Program-made: the position numbers and the translations under genes
Shown here: in pieces, positions 24,612 through 29,959 of the stretch
Layout: the number at the start of each line of letters is the position of its first letter
Position numbering within the stretch: the first letter of the stretch is position 1
Source: an uncultured Oscillospiraceae bacterium
Lineage (GTDB): Bacteria > Bacillota > Clostridia > Oscillospirales > Oscillospiraceae
Direction of reading: 5' to 3'
Length of the DNA: 43,341 bases
Assembly: GCA_947629955.1 (NCBI GenBank)
Contig: CANRFT010000016.1
Coordinates: 1 to 43,341, forward strand
Notes under the pieces: model-generated
Told to the model about the DNA's origin: nothing
The model's input: the letters and a program-made list of their open reading frames with translations, nothing else
The model's database searches: none

Positions 24612-26042
24612 ATGAAGCTGTCCCAGCTGCTCTCCGCCCTCCGCCTCCCCTGCCCCGCCGATGTGGAGATCTCCTCCCTGGCCTGCGATTCCAGGGAGGT
24701 CAGCCCCGGCGCGCTGTTCGTCGCCCTCCCCGGCGCGCGGGAGGACGGCCATGCCCATATCAGGGAGGCCGTCCGGAGGGGGGCCGCCGCCGTCCTCTGC
24801 GCCCCGCCCCTGCCGGAGGGCGTCCCCGCCGCGGCCGTGGACGACCCCCGTGCCGCCCTGGGACCCCTGGCCGCCCGGTTCTACGGCTGGCCCGCCCGGC
24901 AGATGACCCTTCTCGCCGTCACCGGCACCAAGGGCAAGACCACCACCGCCCATATGCTCCGCGCCATCCTCGCCCGGGCCGGCCATACCTGCGGCATGAT
25001 CGGCACCCTGGGCGCTTTCATCGGCGATGACCTCATCGCCCCCGCCGCCAACACCACCCCGGAGCCCATCGCCCTCCACCGGACCCTCCGCCGGATGGCC
25101 GGCGCCCGCTGCTCCCACGTGGTCATGGAGGTCTCCTCCCAGGCCATGAAGCTCCGCCGGGTGGACGGCATCCGCTTCGCCGCCGGTCTGTTCCTCAACC
25201 TCTCCCCCGACCACATCGGCCCCTTCGAGCACGCCTCCTTCGCCGAGTACCGCGCCTGCAAGGCCGCCCTCTTCCGCCAGTGTGCCCGGGCCGCCGGCTG
25301 CCTGGACGACCCCTCCTGGCCCGCCATGGCCGCCCAGCTCCCCCCCGGAGCCCCCGTCCTCACCTTCGGGATGTGCCCCGGCGCCGATGTGCGCGGCGTC
25401 TCCGTCACCCCGGACGGCCTCTCCTCCCTGCTCACCCTGGCCGGCTCACCGGAGCCCTACCGGATCTCCATGCCGGGGGAGTTCAACGCCCGCAACGCCC
25501 TGGCCGCCATCGCCCTCTGCCGCGCCCTCGGCGTGGACGACGACGCCCTCCGCCGGGGTCTCGCCTCCGTCTCCGTGCCGGGACGGGCCCAGCCCTTCCC
25601 CGCCCCAGCCCCCTATTCCGTCCTCATCGACTACGCCCACAACGGCGAGAGTATGCGCGCCCTCCTCTCCGCCCTCCGCCCCCACGTCCGGGGCCGGATC
25701 ATCGCCCTGTTCGGCGCCGGAGGCGACCGGCCCCCTCTCCGCCGCGCCGATATGGCCTCCGCCGCCGCCCGGTACGCCGACTTCGCCGTCCTCACCGAGG
25801 ACAATCCCCGGTCCGAGGACCCCGCCGCCATCTGCGCCCAGATCGCCGCCGCCATCGGCGGCGCCATCCCCCACATCACCGTACCCGACCGCCGCCAGGC
25901 CATCTTCGCCGCCCTGGATATGGCCCGCCCCGGCGACCTGGTGGCCCTCCTGGGCAAGGGGCACGAGGACTACATCGAGCGGAACGGCCTCCGGCGGCAT
26001 TTCTCCGAGTGGGAGGTGCTGGAGGAGTACTTCGGGGCATAA
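24612..26042 (+). CDS. murE: UDP-N-acetylmuramoyl-tripeptide synthetase, DNPR-type (MurE)
   Basis: 476-residue Mur ligase. N-terminal SLACDSREVSPGALFVALPG binds the UDP part; P-loop GTKGKTT (105-111); MEVSSQAMKLRR; Lys in YRACKAALF for carbamylation; the DYAHNGESMRALL domain-3 segment; and selectivity motif DNPR (397-400), the consensus for meso-diaminopimelate addition. It adds the third residue to UDP-MurNAc-L-Ala-D-Glu. Distinctly richer in Ala/Pro/Cys-rich GC codons than its neighbour. The gap before it holds a hairpin but no clear promoter, so expression may depend on read-through. Its presence beside a DDPG paralogue is unusual. Confidence 0.88.
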   Translation: MKLSQLLSALRLPCPADVEISSLACDSREVSPGALFVALPGAREDGHAHIREAVRRGAAAVLCAPPLPEGVPAAAVDDPRAALGPLAARFYGWPARQMTLLAVTGTKGKTTTAHMLRAILARAGHTCGMIGTLGAFIGDDLIAPAANTTPEPIALHRTLRRMAGARCSHVVMEVSSQAMKLRRVDGIRFAAGLFLNLSPDHIGPFEHASFAEYRACKAALFRQCARAAGCLDDPSWPAMAAQLPPGAPVLTFGMCPGADVRGVSVTPDGLSSLLTLAGSPEPYRISMPGEFNARNALAAIALCRALGVDDDALRRGLASVSVPGRAQPFPAPAPYSVLIDYAHNGESMRALLSALRPHVRGRIIALFGAGGDRPPLRRADMASAAARYADFAVLTEDNPRSEDPAAICAQIAAAIGGAIPHITVPDRRQAIFAALDMARPGDLVALLGKGHEDYIERNGLRRHFSEWEVLEEYFGA

Positions 26043-26045
26043 AAA

Positions 26046-26073
26046 AGCCTTCCACCCGCAGGGGGGGAAGGCT
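26046..26073 (+). terminator. Terminator after murE
   Basis: AGCCTTCC / GGAAGGCT stem after the stop codon, preceded by an A-run and followed by CTTAG. Confidence 0.7.
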
Positions 26074-26109
26074 CTTAGAGGATGATGATTGGATCGGGGC
26101 GGGTTCAAG

Positions 26110-26226
26110 GGCAACGTTGACTTTCGGGGTTTTAAAGGGCGGAGAAAATCCCCCGCCTCGCTGCGCTCGGCACCCCCTTTTGCGAAAGGGGGCTTGGTAC
26201 CTCTGAGGCAACGTTGACTTTCGGGG
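26110..26226 (+). repeat. 20-bp direct repeats bracketing a REP-like element
   Basis: GGCAACGTTGACTTTCGGGG occurs exactly at 26110-26129 and 26207-26226. The 77 bases between contain the left REP-like repeat. The second copy supplies the -35 box of the small-ORF promoter. The arrangement looks like an insertion with duplicated target, or a slipped duplication. Confidence 0.75.
26142..26192 (+). repeat. REP-like repeat, left copy (51 bp)
   Basis: Starts GAGAAAATCCCCCGCCTCGC and ends in CCCCC-TTTTGCGAAA-GGGGG, itself a hairpin. An identical 51-base copy lies at 26672-26722 in the same orientation, and an inverted relative at 26762-26813. Intergenic repeats of this look are common in gut Firmicute genomes (general knowledge). 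Confidence 0.8.
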
Positions 26227-26242
26227 GCGAATGTGGTAGAAT
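26214..26242 (+). promoter_or_regulatory. Sigma-A promoter of the 27-codon ORF
   Basis: TTGACT (26214-26219), 17-base spacer, TAGAAT (26237-26242). The predicted transcript starts at about 26249 with GAGGGCCGCCGCGG, the same 5' sequence as that predicted for the antisense RNAs on the other strand. Confidence 0.75.
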
Positions 26243-26298
26243 ACCGTCGAGGGCCGCCGCGGAGTTACGGCGCCCCGACGCGACGGCGGTTTAGCCAC

Positions 26299-26317
26299 CA
26301 CCTTCCGAAAGGAGGTG
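26299..26317 (+). promoter_or_regulatory. SD-sequestering hairpin of the 27-codon ORF
   Basis: CACCTTCC (26299-26306) pairs, with one bulged T, to GGAGGTG (26311-26317) around a GAAA (GNRA) tetraloop. The 3' arm is the ORF's near-perfect Shine-Dalgarno sequence, six bases before its ATG, so translation would be blocked when the hairpin forms, as in many type I toxin mRNAs. Confidence 0.65.
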
Positions 26318-26322
26318 TGTGT

Positions 26323-26406
26323 ATGCCTATTACCATTACGTTTCATATCGGTATCTTTACCGTGACGATTCGGGTAAAAAGCGGAAACCGCCACCCTGCC
26401 CGGTGA
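26323..26406 (+). CDS. 27-residue peptide, candidate type I toxin
   Basis: Short ORF with its own sigma-A promoter, a structured leader of about 74 bases and the strongest SD in the region (AAAGGAGGTG). The peptide begins MPITITFHIGIFTVT and ends SGNRHPAR: an alternating hydrophobic, beta-strand-like core with a cationic tail, unlike the single helix of Fst/TxpA/Ldr toxins. The last codons are covered by convergently transcribed antisense RNA, and a second copy of those codons (with a synonymous change) lies in the neighbouring tandem unit. I do not recognise a named family. Toxicity is inferred only from genetic architecture; a secreted or regulatory peptide is an alternative. Confidence 0.6.
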   Translation: MPITITFHIGIFTVTIRVKSGNRHPAR

Positions 26407-26479
26407 CGGTTTCTATTTATAGAAATTTGATCCTAAGGGGCTAAACCGCTGTTGGGGTGTTTCCGCGGCGGCCCTCTCT
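26376..26479 (-). ncRNA. Candidate antisense (antitoxin) RNA 1
   Basis: Predicted minus-strand RNA of about 100 nt from a perfect promoter, starting near 26479 with AGAGAGGGCCGCCGCGG and ending at a hairpin (26413-26384, GAAACCGTCACC / GGTGGCGGTTTC, one mismatch) followed by CGCTTTTT. Its 3' third is complementary to the last eight codons, stop and 3' UTR of the small ORF. Its 5' end is homologous, not complementary, to the ORF's own leader (GAGGGCCGCCGCGG ... GCGGTTTAGCC). Confidence 0.6.
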
Positions 26480-26485
26480 ATTCTC

Positions 26486-26514
26486 ATTATAGCCCCGTTG
26501 AGGTCGTTTGTCAA
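26486..26514 (-). promoter_or_regulatory. Promoter of antisense RNA 1
   Basis: Minus strand TTGACA (26514-26509), 17-base spacer, TATAAT (26491-26486): consensus at both boxes. Confidence 0.85.
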
Positions 26515-26617
26515 GCGGAAACCGCCACCCTGCACGGTGACGGTTTCTGATACCTATTAGAAATCCAAACCCAAAGGGCTAAACCGCTGTTGGGGCGTTT
26601 CCACGGCGGCCCTCTTT
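26515..26617 (-). ncRNA. Candidate antisense (antitoxin) RNA 2
   Basis: Second copy of the antisense unit, predicted to start near 26617 (AAAGAGGGCCGCCGTGG). It keeps the GAAACCGTCACC / GGTGGCGGTTTC hairpin and the sequence complementary to the ORF's last codons. Its hairpin is followed by CGCTTGACA instead of a T-run, so it may read through into unit 1, giving a longer RNA. Confidence 0.5.
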
Positions 26618-26623
26618 ATGTTT

Positions 26624-26651
26624 ATTATAACACACTCGCTTCGTTTGTCAA
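26624..26651 (-). promoter_or_regulatory. Promoter of antisense RNA 2
   Basis: Minus strand TTGACA (26651-26646), 16-base spacer, TATAAT (26629-26624). Confidence 0.8.
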
Positions 26652-26671
26652 GCGCTAAAGGCTTATGTAAA

Positions 26672-26813
26672 GAGAAAATCCCCCGCCTCGCTGCGCTCGG
26701 CACCCCCTTTTGCGAAAGGGGGTTGGCACTCCTACCGCAACGTGGCAATAGGAGTACCAAGCTCCCTTCGCAAAGGGAGCTGGCACGGCGAAGCCGTGAC
26801 TGAGGGTTTTCTC
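26672..26813. repeat. Inverted pair of REP-like repeats (MITE-like)
   Basis: Right copy of the 51-base repeat (26672-26722) faces an inverted, diverged relative (26762-26813, CTCCCTTCGCAAAGGGAG ... GAGGGTTTTC). Between them is a small inverted repeat ACTCCTA / TAGGAGT. The pair makes an element of about 140 bases with inverted ends. It is followed by a short tandem duplication of GAGGGTTTTCTCT (26802-26842). Confidence 0.7.
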
Positions 26814-26850
26814 TTTAAAATAAGAGGGTTTTCTCTAAAATAACCCCCCC

Positions 26851-27225
26851 TCACCTCACCGCCAGATACCACTCCGTCTCCCCGGCCTTGTTGTGGCACA
26901 GCTCGCCTGTGCACTGGAAGCCCCGCTCCGTCAGCTTCAGCGAGCCCGACGCCCCCGAGACCCCGCTGGTGTTGTAATACAGCCGCGTCTCCGTCAGGAT
27001 AGCGATCGACGGCTTGCTGTACGACACCCCTACCAGCAGCACCAGCCGGGGCTTGAACCCCAGGTCGATCTCCTGCCCCGTGCCGTTCCCCGTGTAGGTG
27101 CCGATGACCGGCGCCTGGTCCCACAGCGCCGTCTCCAGCTTCCGGGCGTTCTCGTTGAAGGGCTCCGGGCCCAGCGGGTCCCCCGTCTCCACAATGTTCA
27201 GTTCGTACTTTTCTGTTTGTTGCAT
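26851..27225 (-). CDS. 124-residue protein with phage-tail-like features, unknown function
   Basis: Begins MQQTEKYELNIVETGDPLGP, a style of N-terminus I associate with short tail or baseplate-associated proteins of clostridial prophages, followed by a beta-rich region (IGTYTGNGTGQEIDLGFKPR) with a lectin- or tail-fibre-like look. No catalytic motif. No other phage gene is nearby, so it would be an orphan or domesticated remnant. It lies downstream of the S-layer gene on the same strand. Its SD (GGGAGGG) is buried in a perfect hairpin, so expression should be low or conditional. The identification is tentative. Confidence 0.6.
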   Translation of the reverse strand: MQQTEKYELNIVETGDPLGPEPFNENARKLETALWDQAPVIGTYTGNGTGQEIDLGFKPRLVLLVGVSYSKPSIAILTETRLYYNTSGVSGASGSLKLTERGFQCTGELCHNKAGETEWYLAVR

Positions 27226-27228
27226 AAA

Positions 27229-27256
27229 GCATCCCTCCCGTTACCGGGAGGGATGC
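27229..27256 (-). terminator. Terminator of the S-layer gene that also hides the next gene's SD
   Basis: Perfect 12-bp stem GCATCCCTCCCG / CGGGAGGGATGC with a four-base loop. On the minus strand the 3' arm carries GGGAGGG and is followed by TTT and the ATG of the 124-residue gene. It lies 42 bases after the S-layer stop. Confidence 0.75.
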
Positions 27257-27298
27257 CTTCGCTTGTTGCACCTTTCGGTGGAACTCTTGTGATTCTAA

Positions 27299-29959
27299 TT
27301 ACTCGGCCTCGGTGTGAGCCACCACGAACACGACCTTAAGGTCGAGGCTGTTAGCCGCGGTCCGCACGCCGTAGATGTCGCACTTGTCGGCCTCCAACTT
27401 GGTCACGCCGCCCACGTAAACCACGGTGGCGCCGCCGATGTTGAAGGTGCCGTCGGTGTCCACGGTGATGGTGTCGGTGCCGACCACGGCGGTGACCTTC
27501 TTGCCGCTCACCATAAGGGTGGTATCGGGCTGAGTGCCGCTCAGGGTGTTGTCCGGGTTGGTCTTATAGATGCCGGCCTTCACGTCCTTACCACCATTCA
27601 TGGTGGTCTTGGTGCCGTCCATCAGGTACACGTCGTAGGTGTAGACAGGCTCGCCGTCCACGATGCTCTGGCTGTAGGTGCCGGGCACGAAGGCCAGGTC
27701 CTCGGTGGCGGTTGGGGCACTGGTCTTGAATGCGATGTTGGCAATCACGTAGGCCGCCACGTAGACCGCGTCCTTGTCCTCACCGGCCTTGGTGGCGGTG
27801 GTGATGATGTACACGTCCTGCTTGCTGGCCGCCTGGATCGTGGTGGCGCCCAGTTCGGTACGGGTCTTCACCACGTAGCCGTCTTTGCCGTCGCTCAGGA
27901 TGAACTTGGTGTTGCCGTTGATCACGGCGGTGACTTTACTCGAATCTTCAACCACAGCCACAGAGGTGTCGCCGTTCTTGATGGCCGTGCTGGGCTTGCC
28001 GGTATCCAGCTTATTGGCGTAAGTGCCGGCTTTGTCCGTGCTCTTATCCTTGGCGTCCTTCAGAGCGGTCTCCAGGGTGATGGCGCCGTCCTTGGTGGTG
28101 TAGGGATACACGCCCGTCAGAACCTTGGTGATGGCACCCTTCACGGTATCCGTGTTACTCTCCTCGTCCGTCACGCCATCCAGCTTCGTGGCGACGCCGC
28201 CGATCATGACATAGTAGCTCCCCACACCAATCTGCACTTCGCCGACCTTTTCAGCGGTAGCCTTCGCGATGGGCAGGTTGTAGATCGCCACATCGCCGGC
28301 GGAGGTCAGGACCTTTACCTGCGCGGTGAAGCCGGTGGCGGGCCAGGTCGCCTTGGTCACGTTGGCGTCCAGGACGATCGCGTAGTCCGTAGAGGCCGCG
28401 GCGGTCTTCTCGCCCTCATAAGCCACGATGGTGTTGCCGATCACATAGAAGGTGTGCTCCTTACCGTCCAGCAGCGCCTTGACATCGTCCTGAGCATCGG
28501 CCTTCTTGGCTGCGGTGTCGTCGCCGGTGCTGCTGATGATCTGGGCGTCGGACAGGGTGTAGTCCTTGCCGCCGATGGTGTACACGGTGTCAGCGGCGGA
28601 GCTGAACTTCTCCATGGTGCCGGTCACGGCCTCGGCCTTGGCGATATCCAGGGCCACGGTCTTGCCGTTGGCAACGCCGCAGGTGTAGGTGATCACGTCG
28701 TCCTTGGCATAGGCGGTGGTCTCCACGTCGATGGTCGCCTTGCCCGGGCCGGGAATCGTGATGGTGCCCTTGTCGGCGTCGATGTCGTCCCCGGTCAGCT
28801 TGTAGGCATAGGTGGTGATGACGACCACGCTGGTGATGGTCTTGCCGTCAGCGCCGGTGTAGATCTCCACCTTGTTGTTGTTCACGCTGGTCAGGTAAGC
28901 GATGACGGTCTTGTCCCCAACCTTGTTGGTGGTCTGGATGTTCTTGGTCAGCTCCTGGTTCAGCTTGCCGTTCACATAGACCTCGGTGCCGCCGGTATAG
29001 TCGTAGTTAGGAGCCGCGCCGTAACCGCCGTCCGTGTCGATCTCATAGTTCTCCACAGCCTTGTCGGCGTCGGCCATGGGGCCGGTCAGGGTGACGGTCT
29101 CAGCGGGGGCATCGGCATAGACGGTCGTGGTGCCATTCTTCCAGACACCGGCGTTGGCGCGGCCGTACACGTCGGTGGCGTCCGCGGCGGTGATCTTACC
29201 GTCAACGCCGTCCTGGTTGCCAGTCCTGGGATCGTCCGTGGCATAGTAGGCCAGACCCTTGTAGTTGATGGTGCGGAAGATGTCGCCCTCATTCCTCACC
29301 GCGTTGACCACGATGGAGGTGCCGTCGGACAGGGTGACGTTGGTGCCGCCCTGATAGGTGACGGTGTTGGCCTTGATGGTGTTGAAGGCCATCTGGGCGG
29401 CCTCCTCACGGGTCAGCTCCTTGGACAGGTCGATGGTGGAGTCAGCGGTCAGATCGGCCTCTTTCAGGGCGATGGCGGCCACGTTGATCTCCCAGCCGGT
29501 CTTGGTGAACTGCTCGATGTCGCTCTTATAGCCCAGCACGCCCAGCATCAGCTTGGCGAACTGGTAGCCGTTCACGTTGAGGGTGGGATAGAAGTGACCC
29601 TGGCCGTCGCCGTCGATGAGGCCGGCGTTGGCGCAGTAGGCGATGGAGCCGGCGGCCCAGCTGTCGGCCTTCACATCGTCAAAGGGGTCGGTGGGAGTGC
29701 CCAGCTTGTTAGCGGCGTCCTTGCCCAGGATCATGTAGGTGACGAGCTTGGCGGCCTGCTCACGGGTCAGAGTGCCCGCGGGGTTGAACGCGCCCTTCTC
29801 ATCGCCCTCGATGACGCCGACGGCGCTCATCACGGCCACGGCCTCATCGTAGTTGATGTCGGCCTGGTCGGTGTAGTCCTTCGCGGAGACGGTGACCATC
29901 ACGGAGACGACCATCATCAGGGCCAGGACCAGCGCGAGGAACTTCTTCAAGTTTCTCAT
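27299..29959 (-). CDS. S-layer protein with N-terminal SLH domains
   Basis: 886-residue exported surface protein. Sec signal peptide (MRNLKKFLALVLALMMVVSV..., cleavage after VSA, about residue 26), then SLH repeats: YTDQADINYDEAVAVMSAVG with FNPAGTLTREQAAKLV; PFDDVKADSWAAGSIAYCAN with FYPTLNVNGYQFAKLM; and a weaker third ending ELTREEAAQMAF (to about 215). The remaining 670 residues are Thr/Ala/Asp/Lys-rich, beta-type, with almost no Cys, typical of a self-assembling lattice. SLH domains bind pyruvylated secondary wall polymer. ATG 29959 is chosen because AAGGAGGAAACACC precedes it and the signal peptide starts there; an in-frame ATG at 30031 is excluded. Codon use is more uniform than in neighbours, as expected for high expression. 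Confidence 0.92.
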   Translation of the reverse strand: MRNLKKFLALVLALMMVVSVMVTVSAKDYTDQADINYDEAVAVMSAVGVIEGDEKGAFNPAGTLTREQAAKLVTYMILGKDAANKLGTPTDPFDDVKADSWAAGSIAYCANAGLIDGDGQGHFYPTLNVNGYQFAKLMLGVLGYKSDIEQFTKTGWEINVAAIALKEADLTADSTIDLSKELTREEAAQMAFNTIKANTVTYQGGTNVTLSDGTSIVVNAVRNEGDIFRTINYKGLAYYATDDPRTGNQDGVDGKITAADATDVYGRANAGVWKNGTTTVYADAPAETVTLTGPMADADKAVENYEIDTDGGYGAAPNYDYTGGTEVYVNGKLNQELTKNIQTTNKVGDKTVIAYLTSVNNNKVEIYTGADGKTITSVVVITTYAYKLTGDDIDADKGTITIPGPGKATIDVETTAYAKDDVITYTCGVANGKTVALDIAKAEAVTGTMEKFSSAADTVYTIGGKDYTLSDAQIISSTGDDTAAKKADAQDDVKALLDGKEHTFYVIGNTIVAYEGEKTAAASTDYAIVLDANVTKATWPATGFTAQVKVLTSAGDVAIYNLPIAKATAEKVGEVQIGVGSYYVMIGGVATKLDGVTDEESNTDTVKGAITKVLTGVYPYTTKDGAITLETALKDAKDKSTDKAGTYANKLDTGKPSTAIKNGDTSVAVVEDSSKVTAVINGNTKFILSDGKDGYVVKTRTELGATTIQAASKQDVYIITTATKAGEDKDAVYVAAYVIANIAFKTSAPTATEDLAFVPGTYSQSIVDGEPVYTYDVYLMDGTKTTMNGGKDVKAGIYKTNPDNTLSGTQPDTTLMVSGKKVTAVVGTDTITVDTDGTFNIGGATVVYVGGVTKLEADKCDIYGVRTAANSLDLKVVFVVAHTEAE

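What the first reader, a model, noticed from the sequence alone, without database searches (positions are those of the whole stretch)
26214..26651. Candidate new type I toxin-antitoxin locus: 27-codon ORF with two tandem convergent antisense RNAs
Seen directly: a short ORF (26323-26406) with a consensus promoter and near-perfect SD. On the opposite strand are two consensus sigma-A promoters (26514-26486 and 26651-26624) driving roughly 100-nt units that end in a hairpin overlapping the ORF's last eight codons and stop. This is the architecture of type I modules with 3'-overlapping antisense RNA. The peptide (MPITITFHIGIFTVT...SGNRHPAR) is beta-patterned and cationic rather than a single helix, so it does not look like Fst, TxpA, BsrG or Ldr. 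Duplication of the antitoxin gene would be unusual.
Basis: partly seen in the sequence, partly recalled or inferred. Interest (0 to 1): 0.88.

Follow-up and report, generated by a model that had tools for sequence, protein, structure and literature searches.

The report
Toxin-antitoxin RNA module with swappable toxins
A tiny gene and the opposing RNAs that appear to silence it form one copy of a large family of probable toxin-antitoxin modules in gut-type Clostridia, built on one shared RNA framework that carries several unrelated small peptides, including one predicted to be hairpin-shaped.

Summary
The 27-codon ORF (26323-26406) belongs to a conserved peptide family: 237 distinct loci, 206 distinct peptides among the DNA held. 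A convergent consensus promoter lies at a near-fixed distance in 219 of 225 flank-complete loci. The reading frame is under purifying selection. The mRNA 5' end pairs with its own 3' region; this pairing covaries, and among imperfect pairs G-U far exceeds A-C (160 v 42). That is the 5'-3' lock known from hok and aapA mRNAs. Because of it, toxin mRNA and antisense RNA start with nearly the same sequence. A model of the leader alone finds the same framework before unrelated peptides, including Pfam Hol_Tox members above cut-off and a new transmembrane class; 60 of 65 such places fetched have the antisense promoter. So this is very probably a type I toxin-antitoxin module on a framework shared by several peptide classes. 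The peptide here is predicted to be an amphipathic beta-hairpin. The second antisense unit is real but rare, and lacks a T-tract of its own. Transcripts and toxicity are untested.

The parts
26214..26242 (+). sense (toxin mRNA) promoter, TTGACT-17-TAGAAT, extended -10
   Evidence: 10 of 12; in the family a promoter of 9 of 12 or better in 143 of 225 loci
26249..26322 (+). toxin mRNA leader (start predicted from the -10 box)
   Evidence: conserved leader GGGCGCTGC..GGCGGTT.GCCAC..CCCGAAAGGGGGTG
26249..26263 (+). outer 5' arm of the long-distance 5'-3' pairing
   Evidence: perfect complement of 26462-26476 (I6); helix 1 has changes on both sides at all 10 pairs across 69 relatives (one of the ten, columns 36-319, has letters in only 9 sequences)
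26285..26296 (+). inner 5' arm of the long-distance pairing (GGCGGTTTAGCC)
   Evidence: pairs with 26439-26450 (I10; fold); anchored covariation 610 of 678 cells paired v 431 when partners are shuffled
26296..26322 (+). local hairpin that holds the Shine-Dalgarno sequence
   Evidence: fold of the window copy, 26296-26321 in the truncated and 26297-26322 in the full-length RNA; column pairs, helix 3 (80.1% of cells paired)
26323..26406 (+). toxin-candidate ORF, 27 aa, beta-type peptide; last eight codons and stop lie in the terminator hairpin
   Evidence: relatives; in-frame pN 0.41 v pS 0.70; other frames about equal
26384..26413 (-). terminator hairpin of antisense unit 1, followed by CGCTTTTTAC
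   Evidence: family: strict terminator scan antisense 122 of 215, sense 0 of 215; T-run of 5 or more after the hairpin antisense 171 of 217, sense 55 of 217
26374..26479 (-). antisense RNA unit 1 (about 100 nt, ends predicted)
   Evidence: promoter 26514-26486, 12 of 12
26439..26450 (+). inner 3' arm of the long-distance pairing
26462..26476 (+). outer 3' arm of the long-distance pairing; equals the 5' end of antisense unit 1 on the other strand
26486..26514 (-). promoter of antisense unit 1
   Evidence: 12 of 12
26513..26617 (-). antisense RNA unit 2 (second copy); its hairpin 26513-26548 abuts the -35 box of unit 1 and has no T-tract
26577..26614 (+). second possible 3' arm: in a transcript that runs through unit 2 the predicted fold pairs the 5' end here instead
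   Evidence: 37 long-range pairs, 26249-26614 to 26296-26577
26624..26651 (-). promoter of antisense unit 2
   Evidence: 12 of 12

Best explanation
A type I toxin-antitoxin module. The plus-strand RNA encodes a 27-aa cationic amphipathic beta-hairpin peptide, the presumed toxin. The minus-strand promoter, closer to consensus than the sense one, makes an antisense RNA of about 100 nt that ends in a hairpin over the last eight toxin codons. That hairpin looks like a terminator only on the minus strand, so the toxin mRNA is expected to run on through the antisense gene. Its 3' part then pairs with its own 5' leader (two helices), which closes the mRNA and leaves no single-stranded landing site beside the hairpin that already holds the Shine-Dalgarno sequence: an inert full-length mRNA, as in hok and aapA. 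Removal of the 3' end up to the stop-codon hairpin would open the leader and allow translation; the antisense RNA binds the 3' half and removes or blocks the mRNA. Shown by comparison: coding selection, antisense promoter at a near-fixed place, covarying 5'-3' pairing, one-way terminator signal, sharing of the framework with Hol_Tox peptides. Inferred: transcripts and their ends, 3' processing, translation block, toxicity. Unit 2 is a second antisense gene in tandem, which probably raises antitoxin dose and may read into unit 1.
For: Relatives: 22 of 42 genomes of the genus at E up to 1 (one of them, G014, is plainly a false match), 72 of 300 of the family, 13 of 295 of the order, 5 of 398 of the phylum, the own genome included each time. 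Antisense promoter of 10 of 12 or better: 131 of 133 (1.2% in shuffles) and 219 of 225 in a narrower zone. Own 5'-3' duplex -47.4 v -33.0 kcal/mol for swapped partners, 75 loci; own better than the mean of the swapped in 75 of 75, best of all in 33 of 75. RNAalifold finds the outer helix without being told; changes on both sides at 10 of 10 pairs of that helix. G-U 160 v A-C 42. Coding. One-way terminator. Leader model R1 finds the same framework with other peptides; 60 of 65 fetched places have the antisense promoter; own 5'-3' duplex -46.3 v -34.5 swapped, 52 loci; Hol_Tox members above Pfam cut-off.
Against: No transcript, processing or toxicity data. The predicted Shine-Dalgarno accessibility is not higher in the truncated mRNA (0.230 v 0.239) and the start codon is even less open (0.452 v 0.543); only the upstream leader opens (0.407 v 0.250), so the step from truncation to translation is inferred. 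The sense promoter is weaker and was not found at 9 of 12 in 82 of 225 loci. No general sense-strand terminator was found downstream (35 of 215 loci, 6 in shuffles), so the end of the toxin mRNA is unknown. The peptide itself has no significant match to any toxin family.
Confidence: 0.83

Rival explanations
1. The small peptide is not a toxin: the antisense-controlled ORF encodes a regulatory or structural membrane peptide, and the tight RNA control serves dosage of that peptide.
For: No toxicity test exists; the peptide has no significant match in Pfam, NCBIfam, PHROGs, PADLOC or the PDB; weak matches to the YrzI family, best E 0.046 for 3 of 14 members.
Against: The same leader, lock and antisense promoter stand in front of Hol_Tox peptides and other short hydrophobic peptides; matches vary from none to ten per genome and some copies lie in phage contigs, which is more typical of toxin-antitoxin modules than of housekeeping peptides.
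Confidence: 0.12
2. The identity of the two 5' ends is not a lock in the mRNA but a leftover of an inverted duplication, or a shared site for a protein or ribonuclease; the pairing is a by-product.
For: Sense and antisense units share the leader start in the window (I6 and I8), and unit 2 shows that units do duplicate. In class C alone own and swapped partners pair alike (-44.4 v -43.4 kcal/mol, six loci).
Against: Mere identity would leave G-U and A-C equally common among transitions; G-U is 160 and A-C 42 in the two helices. Own partners pair better than swapped ones overall. Inner-helix position 3 runs through C-G, U-A, G-U, A-U, G-C and U-G.
Confidence: 0.07
3. Chance promoter-like sites in an intergenic region with repeats; the ORF is not translated.
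For: The locus sits between repeat copies (26142-26192 and 26672-26722).
Against: Purifying selection on the frame, hundreds of relatives with the same layout, promoter excess.
Confidence: 0.01

Closest known systems
aapA/IsoA type I modules of Helicobacter (PMC6733600, abstract and passages read; PMC8309996, passages)
   Same: About 225-nt full-length toxin mRNA (aapA3) held inert by a 5'-3' long-distance pairing, plus transient hairpins that mask the Shine-Dalgarno sequence; cis-encoded antisense RNA; several copies per chromosome; 30-aa peptide (AapA1).
   Different: The IsoA3 -10 box lies at +87/+90 of the toxin transcript, inside the ORF; here the antisense starts in the 3' region and overlaps the end of the ORF. 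AapA1 is an alpha-helix (PDB 6GIG), here a beta-hairpin is predicted; a profile of our peptides finds no PDB chain up to E 10. Nothing in the passages I saw says that IsoA and aapA share a 5' end.
hok/sok (passages in PMC6733600 only, otherwise recalled)
   Same: 5'-3' lock of the full-length mRNA that needs 3' processing.
   Different: The Hok toxin sequence and the coupled mok frame (recalled) were not seen here; no match to a Hok family came up.
Firmicute modules with 3'-overlapping antisense RNA: yonT/SR6 (start of abstract of PMC5848175), txpA/RatA and bsrG/SR4 (recalled)
   Same: Antisense RNA of about 100 nt over the 3' end of the toxin gene (yonT/SR6); some family members here carry Hol_Tox peptides.
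   Different: I did not find a covarying 5'-3' lock with shared 5' ends described for them in the little I read; the beta peptides here are unrelated to the Hol_Tox type by profile comparison.
Fst/par of pAD1 (recalled)
   Same: Convergent toxin mRNA and antisense RNA, hairpin at the end of the toxin gene.
   Different: Recalled: par RNAs share direct repeats, which make them complementary, and a two-way terminator; here the repeats are inverted, so the RNAs start alike, and the terminator signal is one-way.

Membership tests
type I toxin-antitoxin module (general) | short ORF under coding selection | tested here: met
   pN 0.405 v pS 0.701 in frame, about equal in the other two frames, 199 unique sequences, 13 codons outside the hairpin
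type I toxin-antitoxin module (general) | antisense RNA gene overlapping the toxin mRNA | tested here: met
   promoter 219 of 225, terminator on that strand 122 of 215 v 1 in shuffles; transcript itself not shown
type I toxin-antitoxin module (general) | peptide is toxic and antisense RNA neutralises it | not testable with these tools
   needs expression tests
aapA/IsoA family | 5'-3' long-distance pairing of the toxin mRNA | tested here: met
aapA/IsoA family | antisense promoter inside the ORF, antisense towards the 5' side | tested here: not met
   antisense -10 lies 125-190 nt downstream of the start codon in 219 of 225; IsoA3 position
aapA/IsoA family | AapA-type alpha-helical peptide | tested here: not met
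   no PDB chain matched by profile up to E 10 although AapA1 is PDB 6GIG; strand periodicity 167 of 173; AlphaFold hairpin. Short-peptide searches have limited reach
Hol_Tox (PF16935) | profile match above curated cut-off (23.3 bits) | tested here: not met
   this peptide: none. Other peptides on the same framework: 24.2, 25.7, 34.6 and 30.8 bits above cut-off; 22.3 and 16.2 (class D) below; one class C peptide (L442) without match
YrzI family (PF09501, TIGR02413) | profile match above curated cut-off | tested here: not met
   best E 0.11 and 0.046, 3 of 14 members each
Fst family | two-way terminator shared by both RNAs | tested here: not met
   strict scan: sense strand 0 of 215, antisense 122 of 215 (the scan wants an unbroken stem, which the sense strand lacks at one pair); T-run 55 v 171 of 217. 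That this feature defines Fst is recalled
Rfam families | match to any of 4227 models | tested here: not met
   none at gathering or up to E 1 in 26180-26700

The most novel reading that the evidence does not exclude
One RNA framework in gut-type Clostridia (leader, 5'-3' lock, convergent antisense whose 5' end copies that of the toxin mRNA) is a general type I control platform that carries at least three unrelated peptide classes: the beta-hairpin class of this window, the MGNGR..LRF..ISPKA[CY] transmembrane class, and Hol_Tox with its relatives. The beta-hairpin class would be the first membrane type I toxin known to me that does not act as a single alpha-helix. Because mRNA and antisense start alike, the antisense 5' end is a copy of the lock's own 5' arm and competes with it for the same 3' arm.
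Probability: 0.6. Interest if true: 0.85.

Novelty: new variant of a known kind. Interest (0 to 1): 0.74.

Why it matters
If true, it adds a large set of type I modules to Clostridia related to the window's organism (86 of 270 family genomes have the leader at E up to 0.01). Ten searches of an open library gave no listed paper that reports it (I saw listings and a few passages, some of the searches were aimed at relatives such as AapA and YrzI, and subscription journals are mostly missing). It shows a hok/aapA style 5'-3' lock in Firmicutes, separates the RNA control part from the peptide it controls, and offers a beta-type peptide where a review says that the membrane type I toxins it tabulates all display an alpha-helical segment (PMC8309996, passages). 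The lock is a ready test case for covariation-guided mutation.

Tried and rejected
Rejected: a chance ORF; homology to AapA, which I suspected from memory by residue pattern, is not supported by the PDB profile search; a prophage setting for the window copy, as its neighbours are Mur ligases, an SLH protein, acetate kinase and phosphotransacetylase (three of the eight ORFs scanned had no match). Plasmid/phage searches gave only 2 phage records and 1 plasmid-type record. Rfam gave nothing. Shine-Dalgarno accessibility did not rise on truncation, so I do not claim direct masking by the lock. Frequent ongoing toxin exchange is not supported: leaders mostly cluster by peptide class (a class A leader was at least as close in 2 of 33 class B, 2 of 6 C, 4 of 13 D). 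In one search two class D peptides were binned as class A by a loose pattern; corrected by hand: A 2, B 38, C 6, D 13, other 1, none 5 of 65. The class profiles compared were made before that correction (D with 11 of 13).

Selection and dropped rows: alignment A4 has 69 of 118 deduplicated loci (80% identity, length 195-255), out of 140 with both promoters among 225 with full flanks. One search used 75 of 87. One search used 113 of 118; in the 11 with more than one anchor the best-pairing one was taken, the 102 others had one. Alternative-peptide loci: 52 of 65; left out were the 5 without ORF, the 2 beta ones, 1 other and 5 class B places. One search used 65 of the 80 leaders prepared. The 65 places were picked from the R1 lists because they were not already known as beta loci, so class shares among them are not frequencies; two of the five without antisense promoter (L441, L469) lie at contig ends.

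Full report
What was claimed and what is there. The ORF, the ribosome-binding site, the two consensus minus-strand promoters and the hairpin are at the stated places. The stretch 25500-27500 has 4 promoter-like sites against 0.4 expected; terminator-like sites are not in excess. The two antisense units are 83% alike over 72 nt and their hairpins 97% alike over 36 nt. The first 15 nt of the sense leader are the perfect complement of 26462-26476, and 93% complementary to 26600-26614 in unit 2, so sense and antisense RNA begin with the same letters.

Family. The peptide has relatives in 22 of 42 genomes of the genus at E up to 1 (G014 is a false match by its translation), 72 of 300 of the family (39 of 106 genera), 13 of 295 of the order and 5 of 398 of the phylum, the own genome counted each time; most searched genomes lack it. 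A scan of named genomes kept 80 of 161 confirmed places, nearly all metagenome assemblies titled Oscillospiraceae, Ruminococcaceae, Lachnospiraceae, Clostridiales, Clostridia or Bacillota, many with rumen or animal-gut names. The DNA held gives 237 distinct loci (profile score 20 or more) and 206 distinct peptides, 222 of the 237 with the RH-containing tail. In the Vescimonas fastidiosa record no feature is listed at the ORF, but that gene table is incomplete by its own description.

Antisense gene. Of 133 loci with full flanks, 131 have a convergent promoter of 10 of 12 or better; shuffles give 1.2%; it is 12 of 12 in 105 of 141. With more loci and a narrower zone it is 219 of 225. A sense promoter of 9 of 12 or better is found in 97 of 133 (5.1% in shuffles) and 143 of 225, so the antisense promoter is the stronger and more constant one. 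The hairpin at the stop codon passes a strict terminator scan on the antisense strand in 122 of 215 loci (1 in shuffles) and on the sense strand in 0 of 215 (0 in shuffles). A T-run of 5 or more follows it in 171 of 217 loci on the antisense and 55 of 217 on the sense strand. In the alignment one pair of its stem is C-A on the sense strand, which is G-U on the antisense strand (sequence of A4; my reading), and that alone breaks the stem for the strict scan. So it should stop the antisense RNA and let the sense RNA pass. Where the sense RNA ends is unknown: beyond the antisense promoter a terminator was seen in 35 of 215 loci (6 in shuffles).

Coding. On 13 codons upstream of the hairpin, 199 unique sequences, 4000 random pairs, mean pN is 0.405 and pS 0.701; read in the other two frames they are 0.505/0.478 and 0.472/0.456. 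The values are near saturation and the codons were aligned without gaps, so they are rough, but the frame is clearly the selected one.

The 5'-3' lock. For 75 deduplicated loci the duplex of each leader with its own 3' region averages -47.4 kcal/mol, with other loci's 3' regions -33.0; the own partner beats the mean of the others in 75 of 75 and is the best of all in 33 of 75, at worst rank 24. RNAalifold on 69 sequences, aligned without structure, puts a helix between columns 37-43 and 312-318, some 200 nt apart. Counting pairs on the two helices and two hairpins: 90.6% of cells paired v 82.5% in shuffles, 238 cells changed on both sides v 75, none of 500 shuffles as high, and slid versions at 35-54% paired. 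Relatedness inflates such shuffles, but slid versions keep relatedness. The inner helix, anchored without gaps, has 610 of 678 cells paired v 431 (maximum 467) when partners are shuffled; with only single-anchor loci 554 of 612 v 396. Among imperfect pairs G-U is 50 and A-C 13 in the outer helix, 110 and 29 in the inner one: pairing, not mere likeness of two 5' ends, is kept. The full-length window RNA folds with this lock (-118.3 kcal/mol, 38 long-range pairs); in a transcript that runs through unit 2 the 5' end is predicted to pair with unit 2's arm instead (26577-26614). Without the 3' part the leader is freer (mean unpaired 0.407 v 0.250 over 111 loci), but the Shine-Dalgarno stays in its own hairpin (0.230 v 0.239) and the start codon is not freer (0.452 v 0.543). 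aapA3, a known case, has a 225-nt inert full-length mRNA with such a lock, an active form lacking 35 nt, and transient Shine-Dalgarno hairpins (PMC6733600, passages).

Other peptides on the same framework. In the window's own genome, two loci on contig C12 have the same kind of promoter, leader, lock and antisense promoter but encode a 33-aa hydrophobic peptide; that peptide itself is found in only 2 of 300 family genomes. A leader pattern hits 15 of 42 genus genomes (27 places; reversed control 4 matches) and 39 of 300 family genomes (58 places; control 10). Among held loci the pattern is present in 107 distinct places, of which 22 lack the usual peptide tail: six have neither antisense promoter nor a peptide of this kind, five are beta peptides without the tail, nine carry five kinds of other peptide, and two (L057, L230) could not be read simply. 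A model of the leader alone (R1) hits 26 of 42 and 86 of 270 genomes at E up to 0.01 (rough E-values, no shuffled control). I fetched 65 places not already known as beta loci: 60 of 65 have the antisense promoter at +170 to +255, although R1 contains no such information. Corrected peptide classes: beta 2, class B (MGNGR..LRF..ISPKA[CY] and kin) 38, Hol_Tox type 6, MVTYxELF..KRK type 13, other 1, none 5. Four tested peptides pass the Pfam Hol_Tox cut-off of 23.3 bits with 24.2, 25.7, 34.6 and 30.8; two class D peptides score 22.3 and 16.2, below it, and one class C peptide has no match. The four class B peptides tested match nothing in Pfam. Profile comparison gives a probability of 0.1-0.2% for beta against the rest, 0.5-0.6% for B against C and D, and 40% for C against D. 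In 52 of these loci the own 5'-3' duplex is -46.3 v -34.5 kcal/mol swapped, the own partner best in 17 of 52; for the six class C loci alone there is hardly a difference (-44.4 v -43.4). Leaders mostly cluster by peptide class, so the classes parted long ago rather than swapping often.

The peptide. Hydrophobic moment of the core peaks at 160-170 degrees (0.51, 0.49; shuffled 0.24 at 170) against 0.19 at 100 degrees; 167 of 173 peptides favour the strand angle. AlphaFold with 49 rows gives two strands (3-9, 12-18) with confidence near 90 in the first 20 residues and a loose tail (61) (mean 80.3, pTM 0.35; a 30-aa relative, not the window copy, was modelled). The tail NRHSAK is read from the terminator hairpin; in genome G083 four matches have in-frame TGA and the three I could read stop before the tail, so it may be dispensable. 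A review says that the membrane type I toxins it tabulates all display an alpha-helical segment (PMC8309996, passages).

The second antisense unit. Two antisense promoters of 11 of 12 or better within +100 to +500 occur in 12 of 212 loci; six of these are spaced 127-143 nt (the window among them), the other six 291-317 nt as expected for tandem whole modules. In five of the six close cases a second unit with the same hairpin is visible, and its hairpin runs straight into the -35 box of the first unit, without a T-tract; the sixth (L096) has no such hairpin. So the arrangement recurs, and a long read-through antisense RNA is likely. Orphan antisense units without toxin exist in the same genome (contigs C24, C39).

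Judgement. Type I module: very likely, with transcription, processing and toxicity unshown. Not a member of aapA/IsoA, Hol_Tox or Fst by the features tested, though it works like aapA in its lock. New variant of a known kind. Literature: the ten searches listed no paper that reports this family; that library lacks most subscription journals and I read listings and passages only.

Noticed in passing
window 26110-26226, 26672-26722: A 20-nt sequence holding the sense -35 box (26110-26129, 26207-26226) is doubled around an intergenic repeat element (26142-26192, identical to 26672-26722), as if the element had landed in the toxin promoter.
   Followed up: partly
L002 (G000:C24:9770-10180): The same repeat element sits between a sense -35-like box and an antisense unit that has no toxin ORF: perhaps an orphan antitoxin left after loss of the toxin gene.
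   Followed up: partly
L279:8001-8081, L278:8001-8081: Copies of the module lie in phage contigs, one about 2 kb upstream of terminase large subunit and portal genes, one beside an anti-repressor gene.
   Followed up: partly
L165, L166 (G083:C56, C44): Three paralogues read (of four matches with in-frame TGA) whose ORF stops at TGA before the hairpin-encoded tail.
   Followed up: partly
L413-L472: A 24-31 aa transmembrane peptide class (MGNGR..LRF..ISPKA[CY] and kin) on the same RNA framework; the four tested had no Pfam match.
   Followed up: partly
L433 (G051:C11:53500-56000): Four modules with two peptide types (Hol_Tox type and MVTY type) whose leaders lie within 1.4 kb on both strands.
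   Followed up: no
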